From Hyperoplus lanceolatus (taxonomy: Eukaryota > Chordata > Actinopteri > Uranoscopiformes > Ammodytidae), in NCBI GenBank assembly GCA_026929865.2, contig CM049403.1:6160001-6224000 (forward strand): 64,000 nt of DNA, given 5' to 3'. Positions 34,590 through 51,085 of the stretch are shown here, piece by piece. The translations under genes were made by a program, and so were the position numbers. The notes under the pieces are model-generated. The model was not told the origin of the DNA. It did not search any database and saw nothing but the letters and a program-made list of their open reading frames with translations. Position 1 is the stretch's first letter. Each line of letters opens with the position of its first letter.

Positions 34590-36055
34590 TGAATCATTAC
34601 TCCTCTGCGGCTCCTGTATTTTAACCTGATGTGGATTCTTTACTTTATAGCCCATTAATAATGTTGCAGCGAGTATTTCATATGTGTGAAAGGATTTGAT
34701 AGAGTTGATTTATAGTATTGTTGTTGTGTGACTCTTTGTTTGTTGAAATCCAGCTGTCATTGTTGTGAAGATGTTTTAATAAACAACTCATTTGATCCAT
34801 TTATGTCTGTGTCAAGTAAATAATGTTTATTGATCATTAAATATATTGGGTTTGAAAAAATAGTTGCATTTTAAACATGTTACACATAGAATCAAATTAT
34901 TTTAATATTATTGGTTGATAGCATTGATAATTCTGCATTTAAATGTCCAGTGTAGTTTTGGTTTAGTGTTTTATGTCCATACAACGAATTTAAGTTATTT
35001 ATTCTGAAGTTCTAAAGTTCATCTTTTGTCTGACTTGGGATTCGAACCTGAAAACTTTGAGTGATCAGCAGGGGACAGTGCTGCAATTTCATTGGCTGTC
35101 AGGCTGTGCCAACTATCCACGTCTTCGTCGATTCTTTAGCTAAAACTCCCTAAACAGTTTTCCATTCATTCCCTACGGTAGTGCTAAATCACTACGGATG
35201 TAATATATTTTCGGCCACTATCGAGATTTGGGGGGCGCTATTTTCCCCTTACATCTCCCTTAACTTTTTACAATGCATTCTTTAATGTATGAATCATACT
35301 CCTCTGCGGATGTAATATATTTTTAACCTGATGTGGACTCTTTGTTTTATAGCCCATTAATAATGTTGGGGCTGGTATTTCAGCAGTGTTGCCAGGATTT
35401 GATAGATTTTGATGCTATATGTAGCTTCTTGTTAGCCCTCTGGCTCTTTGTTTTTTGAAAATCCAGCTGTTTTTCTGGTGTAATTGGTGATTTTTTAATA
35501 AGCAAATCTCACTTTGTCAACTAGGGCTGTGTCAAGCGATAAAAAAGTTTATTGATCTAATTAAATATATAGGCTCTGTGATTAATTAATTGTAATTTAA
35601 TACATAGTTTTATGACACTTTTATACCTGTTTATAAACAGTGTATTGCGTTGATAGCCTTGCTAACTCTGCATTTAACTCTCTCTGTGTACTCCATTCTG
35701 GTAACTACTGTTTCCACAACACTGCTCCACTGCCACAGAATGCTTAAGCTTATTCATTCACCAAGTTCTAAAGTTCATAGCAAAAATTTTGTAGATTGAG
35801 ACTCACACACTCAACACTTTGAGTGCACAGCACGGGGACACACCTACACATTCGTTTAGGCTGTCAGGCTGTGCCAACTATCAATCTTCGTCGACTCTTT
35901 AGCTAAAACTGAGAGATACTGTTTTGCATTCATACCCTACGATTGTTGCTAAACCACTACGGATCAATATATTTTCAGACACTGGCTGCGGAGATTTAAG
36001 GTGAGATGTTTTCCTACCTTCATGCTTCTTAAACCGTCTATAATGCATTCTCTAT
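34590..36055 (+). repeat. Tandemly duplicated terminal unit of the large transposon (~0.7 kb x 2)
   Basis: Unit I (about 34,590-35,288) and unit II (about 35,289-36,055) share 'actcctctgcgg', 'ttaacctgatgtgga', 'tagcccattaataatgtt', 'gtgccaactat', 'cactacggat' and 'ataatgcattct'-like blocks in the same order. Unit I carries a perfect minus-strand B-box sequence (GGTTCGAATCC, 35038-35048). Diverged and inverted relatives lie at 49.2-51.1 kb. Confidence 0.75.
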
Positions 36056-36146
36056 CGTCTGTTTCTCTCTTTACGTTTTCTACCTTTTCGCCCGCGGGGG
36101 CTGTGTCTGCTTGGAGTGTGCAGGCGGGCGGGGCTGGGCTACTTAG

Positions 36147-36760
36147 CAGTGTTGCCAACTAGGGATTTTGTGGCTATTATAGAAGTGCGATTCAGCCCCT
36201 CTGGCGTTTTTTTTTTTAATCGCGTTAATTTTTCTGTGATTAATTATTCTGGTGTAATTAAGGTGTTTTTTTGACAGCCCAAATATCACTTTTAACGCTT
36301 CTCAACGAGCAGCGGGAGCCTCCCGGCCCGTCCCCCGTCACAGAGCACTGACAGACGGCCCGGTCCTCGCGCTGCAGCCCCTCCCAGCTGCGGTCAGAGC
36401 AGGAGATACCTCTCCGCTCGTGTTCCGTTAGCATCACTATTAGCAGTTAGCAGCTTTTCCCACCTCTTCTACAGTCTACGAGTAGTGCAATTCAAAATGT
36501 TATGCAGTGCTTTTTTAAACCATGAGCATGTATGATTACTGCTAGACTTAACATTACCACGTTGGTTGTTTATGCGATTGTCACGTTCATAACACTAGAA
36601 CCTCATCTATTTAAATATTACTGTATAAAACCCCTGTCTACAAATATGCAAATTAGGCGATGACGTCATCTACAAATATGCAAATTAGGTAATGACGCCA
36701 TCTGGCGACTTCTAGCGACTTTTTGGACAGCCAATAGCTACTTTCCTTACTGAAGAGTTG
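36147..36760. mobile_element. Non-autonomous element starting CAGTGTTGCCAAC
   Basis: The left end 'cagtgttgccaactagg' faces 'actgaagagttggc' at about 36,757. The interior has GC-rich sequence at 36,300-36,420 and 'gcgacttctagcgacttttt' near the right end, a phrase typical of fish repeats. Boundaries are approximate. Confidence 0.5.
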
Positions 36761-48712: not shown

Positions 48713-48743
48713 CGTCTGTCTGTCTGTCTGTCTGTCTGTCTGT
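48713..48743. repeat. (GTCT)n microsatellite
   Basis: About seven to eight tandem GTCT units. Confidence 0.95.
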
Positions 48744-49239
48744 GACTCGCATATCTCTCTCACTGTTAGTCAGATCGGCCTGAGCTTCTGGATATCGCTT
48801 GCGCACAGCACAAAGGTGTGCATCCTTGATTGATTATGAAGTTTTGGACCAAATATGTAGAAGTTATCATATTTATATCATGCTGCCAGCGAATACATGC
48901 GCACACTGAAGGTCACAGTAACGACGGGCATGAAGCGGCATGAAGTAGTCTCCGGGCTAAACCCCGCCTCCCTCTGGTTTGATTGGCTGCTGCGACCAAA
49001 GCTTGAAATGAGTGACGAGTGGGACACACACAGCAGACCTGCTTCCTACGGGCAATGCACTAGTTTCTGTAAACTGAATAAAAATTCAAATTAATTCCAC
49101 GTCATCCCAGTTCAACGCGAATGCAACAATAATACTGTTGCAGTTTTATTTCCTCAAATGTGAGCCAGGAAAATGTAAATTTTTAAATATTGTAAATAAA
49201 ATTAAAATCTGTTTTATATTTATATTATGTTTCTTGAAT

Positions 49240-51085
49240 ATTAAGTTGTGATGCTTGTTGTGAAGATTGTTAATAATAAATGATTAAGATGTAACTGTCC
49301 TTGTGTAATTTTAATAAGTGAATAATTTTTTGTGATCATTGAATCTATTGGATTGTAAAAAGTAGCTGCATTTTAAATATGTTGTATACACTAAGTATGA
49401 AAGGTATGTAATATAATTGGTTAATAGCCATAATAAATATGTCAAGGACTTGACAATGCTTTAGTATTTTTTTCCACACTGCATTTGAGTTATTTCTTCT
49501 AAGCTCCTAAATGTATTACCAATATAAAGTGTAGAAAACATTAGCACACACCTCTCTGTCTGTAACTTAAATATAATGCTAATCATAAGAGAAGAAAACC
49601 ATCAAAGTGAGATTAACATTTCTTGTTTCAAAACCACCTCTTTACCTTTTGTCCGTTCCGGGGTTTGAACCTGCGTCCAGATATTTATCTTAACTACTTA
49701 AGGGAAAACTTTGAGGGGTTAAGCACCATAGTCAGGAGAGGTCGATGCTGCAAGACGTGGATAGTTGGCACAGCCTGACAGCCAATGAAATTGCAGCACT
49801 TCCCCCTGCTGATTTATGGGCCAAATCACTCAAAGTTCGCAGGTTCAAATCCCAGTTCAGACAAAAGATGAAGTTTAGAACTTCAGAATAAATAACTTAA
49901 ATTAATTGTACGGACATAAAACACTAAACCAAAACTACACTGGACATTTAAATGCAGAATTATCAATGCTATCAACCAATACTATTCACTAGTAACTCTA
50001 ATGTTAGGTATTTATCTTCATCTCTTATCTATTGAGTTTTATGAATGACTGCACGTACAGTTGTCAGATCGCGGTCGTTGCCTAGTAACTTGCTCGAAAA
50101 TATTTCATTTTCCTGGGCGGGTAGAATTGACCCAGTGCATTGTGGGGCGGTTGAGTAGGAAAAGTATACAATCGATTCATACCCAAAATCTTCCCGGAAG
50201 TTAGTACTCATCCGGGAATTTCTCGCATCTCCGCGAGACTGCGGCTGTATCCCGTTACAGAGACCGCCTCCTTGGTAGGACGCGGTCTCGCGGTCTATGA
50301 AGGCTATAGCCTATGAAGGCCGATTCCAAGGCCGAACCACTGCCGAACGAGCGTTGTTAAACGGGACGGTCTCCGCAGGTCTCCGTTTACGAGCATTTCC
50401 GGTTTGCCTAACAAGCCGTTACCTTGCGTGACGACATGCCGCTCCTGTGCTGCCTAGCAACCCTGATAGCTGCCAACGGAGACAGCCTTGTCAGCAGAGG
50501 AAAAAAGAAAAAGAAGTTGCCTATCAGACGAAAAGAAAAAAAGTACAAGAAAAAAAGAAAGGAAGATAAAAGTTAAGAAGATGGAGCAACACGTTGCTGT
50601 TTTGTTATTTTTCATTTTATTGTATGCCATCTCTGAAAAAAACGCAATAAATCATGGGATATGTTGGGCTGCGAAGGATACATCTGATGCAGCCTTCAAA
50701 ACCGTGAAACGAAGGTTGCATTTCTCGGCCGCATATGAGGAGCCTTGCAAGGAGCCTTGCAAATGGAACAACCTTTGCGCGCCGCTATGATGCAATCGGT
50801 CTTCAAATGCAGCCTTCGTAGACCGCAACCCCTGAATCGAGATACAGCCTGTGTCCTACCCATGGGCCCATAAAGAAGGTCCTACCAAGGAGGCGGTCTC
50901 TGTAACGGGAGAGAGAAGGCGGAAGTAGAGCTTCTCCTCCGCCTACCAGTTTAGAGAGAGGGCGGGTAAAACAGCGCCCCCCAAAATCCCTTAAGTGGCC
51001 GAAAATATATTACATCCGTAGTGGTTTAGCACTACCATAGGGAATGAATGGGAAATGGTTTAGGGAGTTTTAGCTAAAGAATCCA
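49240..51085 (-). repeat. Right-hand inverted terminal region of the large transposon
   Basis: Read in reverse, 49,735-49,990 matches 34,910-35,128 ('catcttttgtctga', 'gtgtagttttggtttagtgt', 'catttaaatgtcca'), and 50,945-51,085 matches 35,129-35,290 and 28,854-29,000. Part of it (49,300-49,500) is instead a diverged direct relative of 34,790-35,000, so the region is itself partly palindromic. B-box-like sequences lie at 49,842-49,852 (plus) and 49,662-49,671 (minus). An unrelated element is nested at 50,250-50,910. Confidence 0.7.
50250..50910. mobile_element. 661 bp non-autonomous element with 31 bp perfect inverted ends
   Basis: TCCCGTTACAGAGACCGCCT and onward at 50250-50280 is exactly complementary to 50880-50910. 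Further in, 'tgaaggctatagcctatgaag' and GC-rich 'ggccgattccaaggccgaac' face 'gaccgattgcat'-like sequence. A lysine-rich open frame inside (50,488-50,790) has no family features. No clear target-site duplication. Confidence 0.75.

What the first reader, a model, noticed from the sequence alone, without database searches (positions are those of the whole stretch)
34590..51085. Large, spliced, hard-to-classify DNA transposon with duplicated long terminal units
Exons spanning 36.8-47.95 kb encode, in order, a Cx3C plus CCKVC cysteine domain, a transposase-like stretch with WVDRDCC and KLDLFHCMRRL, and a C-terminus with repeated cysteine modules. The element has at least three introns, and its terminal blocks recur at 28.85, 35.13, 35.9 (same strand) and 51.0 kb (inverted). 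A truncated second copy sits at 31.1-34.2 kb. Size, splicing and terminal architecture differ from Tc1, hAT or piggyBac. I recall similar ORFs being common but unnamed in fish genomes (DUF6729-like), so this may be a poorly described superfamily.
Basis: partly seen in the sequence, partly recalled or inferred. Interest (0 to 1): 0.8.

Follow-up and report, generated by a model that had tools for sequence, protein, structure and literature searches.

The report
Decayed Dada transposon cluster beside tRNA-Pro
This stretch of what looks like fish DNA holds several decayed, partly nested copies of a known kind of "jumping gene" (Dada) that inserts into small-RNA genes, here a family not found named in the papers consulted, lying in a cluster of proline tRNA genes.

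Summary
The coding exons are real (Pfam DUF6729, E 3.4e-13) but belong to a described superfamily, Dada, whose members insert into multicopy small-RNA genes. Elsewhere in this 807-Mb genome a U1 snRNA gene is cut at the published Dada-U1 site, 3.2 kb before another DUF6729 exon. The window protein is collinear with that element and with published Dada-U6_DR: CCCC finger, D1-67-D2 (68 published), DxxH, E, C-terminal C-C-H-C modules. KDZ, a host gene and a new superfamily are not supported.

The "duplicated long terminal units" are not TIRs but the unlike 5' and 3' ends of several copies placed head-to-tail and tail-to-tail. 39.77-45.16 kb is a nested insertion, not an intron: three of four sister copies are unbroken there. 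The window copy is dead (a stop, a frame change, insertions).

Probably new is the family: 22-25% identical to other Dada here over DUF6729. One copy's 3' end lies inside a tRNA-Pro gene after nucleotide 42, and the window cluster lies between two intact tRNA-Pro genes. tRNA-Pro is not a target named in the 2022 fish Dada survey. With one direct junction, targeting is suggestive, not proven.

The parts
28384..28455 (+). intact tRNA-Pro (cgg) gene flanking the cluster
   Evidence: ARAGORN; Rfam RF00005 55.2 bits
28739..28841 (+). spacer sequence near tRNA-Pro, repeated at 51100-51204 on the other side of the cluster
   Evidence: 87% identity
28850..35125 (+). copy 'el-0': diverged, interrupted Dada copy; 5' block at 28857-28992, gene 5' part in pieces at 31539-34188, 3' end at 34904-35125; that these pieces are one copy is inferred from their order
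   Evidence: a related form (80.6% over 33034-35125, 85% over 31539-31692) is multi-copy elsewhere
35126..49753 (+). copy 'el-3': gene-bearing Dada copy; 5' block 35126-35324, 3' side running to 49753 where el-4 abuts
   Evidence: 5' block 90% identical to the C5 copy; coding stretches 91-96% and other stretches 76-92% identical to C263, C4 and C5 copies
35278..36054 (+). older 3'-end/5'-start junction inside el-3 (73% identical to 34577-35284); origin unresolved
38949..39765 (+). exon with DUF6729 / CCCC finger (C-x3-C-x31-C-x2-C); one in-frame stop
   Evidence: Pfam
39766..45164 (.). nested insertion (nest of inverted repeats) interrupting the exon; not an intron
   Evidence: inverted repeats; absent in three of four sister copies; the fourth (C6) has about 980 bp of unmatched sequence there
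45165..45444 (+). exon with D1 (SDQTRKV) and D2 (WVDR)
   Evidence: collinear with the Dada-U1 element of this genome
45695..46731 (+). exon with DxxH (LDLFH) and putative catalytic E (RGTSQQEGYHF); frame change near 46.05 kb
   Evidence: E region 30% identical over 99 aa to the Dada-U1 element, E 5e-7
46902..47318 (+). downstream coding exon
   Evidence: open frame; 94-95% over 82 aa in C263 and C5
47433..47950 (+). C-terminal coding end with two cysteine modules (C-x2-C...H...C), in different frames here, ending at a stop
48044..48544 (.). 501-bp insertion absent from the C263 and C5 copies
49750..51096 (-). copy 'el-4': inverted, internally deleted copy (3' end at 49752-49986, 5' end at 50944-51096)
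51280..51351 (+). intact tRNA-Pro (tgg) gene flanking the cluster
   Evidence: ARAGORN; Rfam 56.7 bits

Best explanation
A decayed cluster of DNA transposons of the Dada superfamily. The spliced gene encodes a DDE transposase: an N-terminal CCCC zinc finger (Pfam DUF6729), a D-D(DxxH)-E catalytic core, and C-terminal C-C-H-C modules. By analogy with published Dada (inferred, not shown here), the transposase recognises the sequence of a multicopy small-RNA gene, cuts the element out at its unlike 5' and 3' ends, and pastes it into that gene, making a short target duplication. For this family the favoured target is probably the anticodon arm of tRNA-Pro, entered in antisense. One copy (contig C263) shows one such junction directly; the window copies lie in a tRNA-Pro cluster, in the spacer. 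Shown here: motifs collinear with Dada, the two ends, one tRNA-Pro junction, tandem and inverted stacking, nested insertions, loss of reading frame. Inferred: catalysis, target recognition, how the stack formed. The confidence given is for membership of Dada; for tRNA-Pro as main target it is about 0.55.
For: DUF6729 match. In the stretch C4:4170100-4190099, antisense U1 nt 164-90 ends in AAATTCGCA and gives way to non-U1 sequence at position 6788/6789; the published Dada-U1 target is ATTCGCAGGGGTC (PMC8869645; intact U1 here reads ATTCGCAAAGGTC). A DUF6729 exon follows on the + strand from 9955, and its protein carries the same four motifs; the E region matches ours at 30% over 99 aa, E 5e-7. 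Motif spacing: D1-D2 67 residues in the window and in C5 against 68 in Dada-U6_DR; D2 to E about 183 in the window against 176 (PMC3706591). An ORF downstream of the C21 DUF6729 exon ends in C-x2-C-x9-H-x8-C, the published Dada-U6_DR spacing. C263 copy: tRNA-Pro nt 1-42 at C263:593-634 meets the element 3' end; nt 43-72 lie at 15001-15030 beyond a 7.5-kb run of N. The window cluster lies between two tRNA-Pro genes. A Dada 3' end is followed directly by a Dada 5' end at 35125/35126, as published for tandem Dada-U1A. Chance estimate for 2 of 5 gene-bearing loci having an end within 400 bp of a listed tRNA-Pro gene: 7.6e-8; post hoc, the 400-bp limit was set after seeing 395 bp, and the C84 positions were approximated.
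Against: Of 31 places with the 3' end, 25 lie in one repeated context and one of the other six is in tRNA-Pro. Of seven 5' ends, none abuts an RNA gene; L032 (the window's el-4) and L033 (C5) have a tRNA gene 190-220 bp away. No clean target-site duplication was recovered at any copy examined. The far side of the C263 insertion is hidden by N. DUF6729 identity to other Dada here is only 22-25%. D2-E spacing in C5 is 217 when read through a stop. The U1 junction and the DUF6729 exon after it are 3.2 kb apart, so that they are one element is inferred. A half 5S gene near the C16 DUF6729 copy is not placed as a flank of it. No published Dada protein could be compared directly.
Confidence: 0.92

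Rival explanations
1. A Dada lineage that has lost strict targeting, or whose main target is another RNA gene (for example the Dada-tD/tV branch, described as loose in its choice among tRNAs), with the tRNA-Pro neighbourhood secondary or incidental.
For: Five of six 3' ends in distinct contexts are not in tRNA-Pro. The insertion point in tRNA-Pro is in the anticodon arm and antisense, like Dada-tD/tV, which PMC8869645 describes as inserting in several tRNAs. The C5 copy begins about 180 bp from a tRNA-Arg gene.
Against: Two of five gene-bearing loci are in tRNA-Pro clusters, unlikely by chance (post hoc).
Confidence: 0.35
2. A KDZ (Zisupton, Kyakuja, Dileera) transposon.
For: Cysteine-rich, large, known from fish (recalled; papers in the listing, passages).
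Against: No KDZ model among Pfam matches of the exon pieces. DxxH and motif spacing match Dada. A sister DUF6729 element lies beyond a cut at the Dada-U1 site.
Confidence: 0.02
3. A single-copy conserved host gene, or a domesticated one like dDada of carps.
For: Spliced, long exons.
Against: Frame broken here; five gene-bearing loci; 46 DUF6729 matches in the genome, exon by exon, at about 24 places by my grouping.
Confidence: 0.01

Closest known systems
Dada superfamily of DNA transposons (Kojima and Jurka 2013, PMC3706591; Kojima 2022, PMC8869645)
   Same: N-terminal CCCC finger, D-D-DxxH-E order and near-equal D1-D2 spacing, C-terminal C-C-H-C, introns, no TIRs, sister loci at small-RNA genes, head-to-tail copies without extra bases.
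   Different: tRNA-Pro is not among the targets named in the papers' text; the C-terminal cysteine module is doubled with wider spacing; most copies seen here are not inside an RNA gene; no target duplication recovered.
Dada-tD/tV lineage
   Same: Insertion in the tRNA anticodon arm, element antisense to the tRNA (as described in the text of PMC8869645).
Pfam PF20499 (DUF6729)
   Same: Direct profile match of the zinc-finger exon.
   Different: Named only as a domain of unknown function; the present calls tie it to Dada transposases.

Membership tests
Dada superfamily | N-terminal CCCC zinc finger | tested here: met
   C-x3-C-x31-C-x2-C in the window; Dada-U6_DR positions 389, 394, 429, 432
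Dada superfamily | DDE core with DxxH after the second D | tested here: met
   D1-67-D2, LDLFH, RGTSQQEG; collinear with the DUF6729 element beyond the U1 junction. Motif level only; catalysis and RNase H fold not tested.
Dada superfamily | C-terminal CCHC finger | tested here: met
   Two C-x2-C..H..C modules, with wider H and C spacing than published; the exact published spacing is seen in a sister DUF6729 locus, C21
Dada superfamily | introns in the transposase gene (all but Perkinsus) | tested here: met
   Coding gap after WVDR of about 230-250 bp kept in the window, C263, C4 and C5; no transcript seen
Dada superfamily | no terminal inverted repeats | tested here: met
   5' and 3' end blocks show no match to each other in the window self-comparison (matches of 50 bp or more) and read as unlike sequences
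Dada superfamily | 6-7 bp target-site duplication | tested here: inconclusive
   No copy with both ends in one recognisable target; one side of C263 is N
Dada superfamily | insertion inside a multicopy small-RNA gene | tested here: inconclusive
   Met at one end of the C263 copy (tRNA-Pro nt 42); not met for the window copies (spacer of a tRNA-Pro cluster) or the other ends examined
Dada superfamily | sequence match to published Dada transposases | not testable with these tools
   Supplementary alignment not available (supplement look-ups capped at 0)
KDZ / Zisupton | match to a KDZ transposase profile | tested here: not met
   No KDZ hit among the exon pieces, scanned separately at E up to 1 and up to 10; the spliced core was never scanned as one (searches failed)

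The most novel reading that the evidence does not exclude
A further, deeply divergent target-specific Dada lineage ("Dada-tP") that inserts antisense into the anticodon arm of tRNA-Pro genes, adding tRNA-Pro to the known Dada targets; and Pfam DUF6729 is the N-terminal zinc-finger domain of Dada transposases generally.
Probability: 0.55. Interest if true: 0.4.

Novelty: new member of a known kind. Interest (0 to 1): 0.33.

Why it matters
It gives a name to a protein family listed only as DUF6729: in this genome these proteins look like Dada transposases, so annotators can rename them. If tRNA-Pro targeting holds, the lineage is one more natural example of a DDE transposase that reads a particular RNA gene, useful for work on site-specific insertion. 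Otherwise the locus is an ordinary graveyard of decayed transposons.

Tried and rejected
TIR reading: rejected, because the block taken for a TIR is the 5' end of several copies and the 3' end is a different sequence. KDZ/Zisupton: no Pfam support for the separate exon pieces (the best new matches were TMEM260-like at E 0.011 and DUF2232 at 0.093, both below their cut-offs and not believed). Host gene: rejected by the broken frame and multiple copies. Structure prediction of the D1-D2 exon alone (93 aa) was worthless (mean pLDDT 42.8); the core is split over exons, so no contiguous piece was folded further. Two pattern-based scans of IMG/VR viral contigs (of 8 allowed) gave no confirmed relative. 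Rfam at E up to 10 on 27000-53000 found no part of an RNA gene at the copy ends. A hAT-like end beside the multi-copy 3'-end context was suspected from a recalled motif, but the matching other end was not found in the 8 kb looked at, so it is not claimed. In one search the C16 row was translated in mixed frames; it is dropped from the identities (14 of 15 rows used) but was in the tree. No background control was run for how often random 20-kb stretches hold small-RNA genes; 8 of 10 fetched DUF6729 stretches did, not counting the window, and 14 further DUF6729 places were not examined with flanks (24 places by my grouping, less the ten stretches; the window is among the 14 and was examined).
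Full report
WHAT IS THERE. The window lies at C9:6160001-6224000 of an 807-Mb, 527-contig genome, taken here as a fish from its content; the species is not given. The exon at 39213-39794 matches Pfam DUF6729 at E 3.4e-13. Further exons carry SDQTRKV, WVDR|DCC, LDLFH, RGTSQQEGYHF and two C-terminal cysteine modules. The frame holds one stop and one frame change, so this copy is dead.

IDENTITY. The published Dada transposase has a CCCC finger, a DDE triad with DxxH, and a C-terminal CCHC finger; in Dada-U6_DR D1-D2 is 68 residues and D2-E 176 (PMC3706591, parts 1-3 of 4 read). 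Here D1-D2 is 67 and D2 to E about 183 (across the frame change); in the C5 copy, read through a stop, it is 217. The genome gives 46 DUF6729 matches, counted exon by exon, at about 24 places by my grouping. In one of these places, C4:4170100-4190099, antisense U1 nt 164-90 ends in ATTCGCA, the published Dada-U1 target (PMC8869645, parts 1, 2, 3 and 5 of 5 read), and a DUF6729 exon follows 3.2 kb on. Its motifs are KYDSTRKV, YVDRGCC, LDIFH and RGSNSLEGIHF, collinear with the window's, and the E region aligns at 30% over 99 aa. That junction and exon are one element is inferred; the other junction was not found in the stretch. An ORF downstream of the C21 DUF6729 exon ends in a C-x2-C-x9-H-x8-C finger, the exact Dada-U6_DR spacing. 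Of ten stretches of about 20 kb around DUF6729 loci, eight hold at least one small-RNA gene; several stretches have runs of N and no random control was run. No paper in the library holds the word DUF6729.

ENDS AND COPIES. A pattern from the 5' block found 7 places in the genome (reversed control 0), and one from the 3' block found 31 (control 0). Flanks of all 31 were read: 26 stretches of 166 bases and five already held (C263, C4:5590575, C6, two in the window). Twenty-five of the 31 lie in one repeated context, some diverged from it; two of those copies are 99.94% identical over 1731 bp, so I count them as spread of one insertion (inference). They carry a relative of el-0 (81-85% identical to window 33034-35125 and 31539-31692). 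The other six are C263 (tRNA-Pro nt 42), C4:5590575, C6:37494422, C4:14428492, and two in the window (35125, joined to the next copy's 5' end; 49752, joined to el-3's 3' part). None of the seven 5' ends abuts an RNA gene: Rfam finds two tRNA genes in the seven 3-kb stretches, tRNA-Pro beside el-4 and tRNA-Arg beside C5, both about 190-220 bp off. BLAST with the 13 RNA genes used found besides only short matches, the best a 20-base tRNA-Gly piece about 460 bp outside one end, in L035.

WINDOW ARCHITECTURE. From left to right: intact tRNA-Pro (28384); spacer; el-0 (about 28850-35125); el-3 with the gene (35126-49753), carrying an old 3'/5' junction (35278-36054), a 5.4-kb nested insertion (39766-45164) and a 501-bp insertion (48044-48544); inverted, internally deleted el-4 (51096-49750); spacer; intact tRNA-Pro (51280). 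The 5.4-kb insertion is absent in three of four sister copies; the fourth, C6, has about 980 bp of other sequence there, without a match to the window. The spacer sequence just outside the cluster is duplicated (28739-28841 and 51100-51204, 87%). How that arose is unresolved; an exchange between units of a tRNA-Pro array is one possibility.

TARGET. On contig C263 several tRNA-Pro genes lie in an array; one gene is cut after nt 42 with the family's 3' end beside it, antisense, and a second gene is cut after nt 41 by a different sequence. The two cuts suggest a preferred site. The far side of the first insertion is masked by a 7.5-kb run of N. tRNA-Pro is multicopy here (64 matches listed, 40 of 60 candidates scored). 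tRNA-Pro and Dada-tP do not occur in the held main text of PMC8869645, and Dada-tP occurs in no paper of the library; a combined search gave two papers, seen only as a listing. Supplements and Repbase could not be searched.

RELATIVES. Over the DUF6729 exon the window copy is 89-92% identical to four sister copies and 22-25% identical to nine other rows (C21, C20, L003-L008, U1); a fifteenth row (C16, 18%) was dropped for a frame error, though it was in the tree. In that FastTree run the family sits on a long branch (1.55 substitutions per site), which fits an old lineage but is not a placement among published lineages.

VERDICT. An ordinary kind of object, a decayed Dada cluster, with two useful additions: DUF6729 is very probably a Dada domain, and a divergent family probably favours tRNA-Pro.

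Noticed in passing
C263:15257-15297 (L028): A second tRNA-Pro gene in the same array is cut after nt 41, joined to an unrelated sequence of about 1.9 kb with no coding content recognised.
   Followed up: partly
L036-L052, L054-L061 (25 places): A relative of the el-0 Dada piece is carried inside another repeated context at 25 places; two copies are 99.94% identical over 1731 bp, so this passenger seems to have spread recently.
   Followed up: partly
L012:4179-4227; L016:3840-3863; L026:4536-4578: Further part-genes near DUF6729 loci: U5 nt 1-49, 5S nt 96-119 and a tRNA-Tyr nt 1-44. The 5S piece is not placed as a flank of the DUF6729 copy there.
   Followed up: partly
window 42163-44606: A 2.4-kb near-palindrome (81% over 2590 aligned columns) inside the nested insertion.
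   Followed up: no
C84:914-28674: A tandem array of tRNA-Pro genes with a unit of about 1.2 kb; most units also hold a shorter tRNA-Pro-like match, nt 15-72.
   Followed up: no
window 5798-5922, 11544-11663, 12536-12659, 62380-62458: Arrays of the same short tandem repeat at four places, two orientations.
   Followed up: no
window 52270-52560: An open frame with a RING-finger-like cysteine/histidine pattern next to the cluster (pattern recalled, not searched).
   Followed up: no
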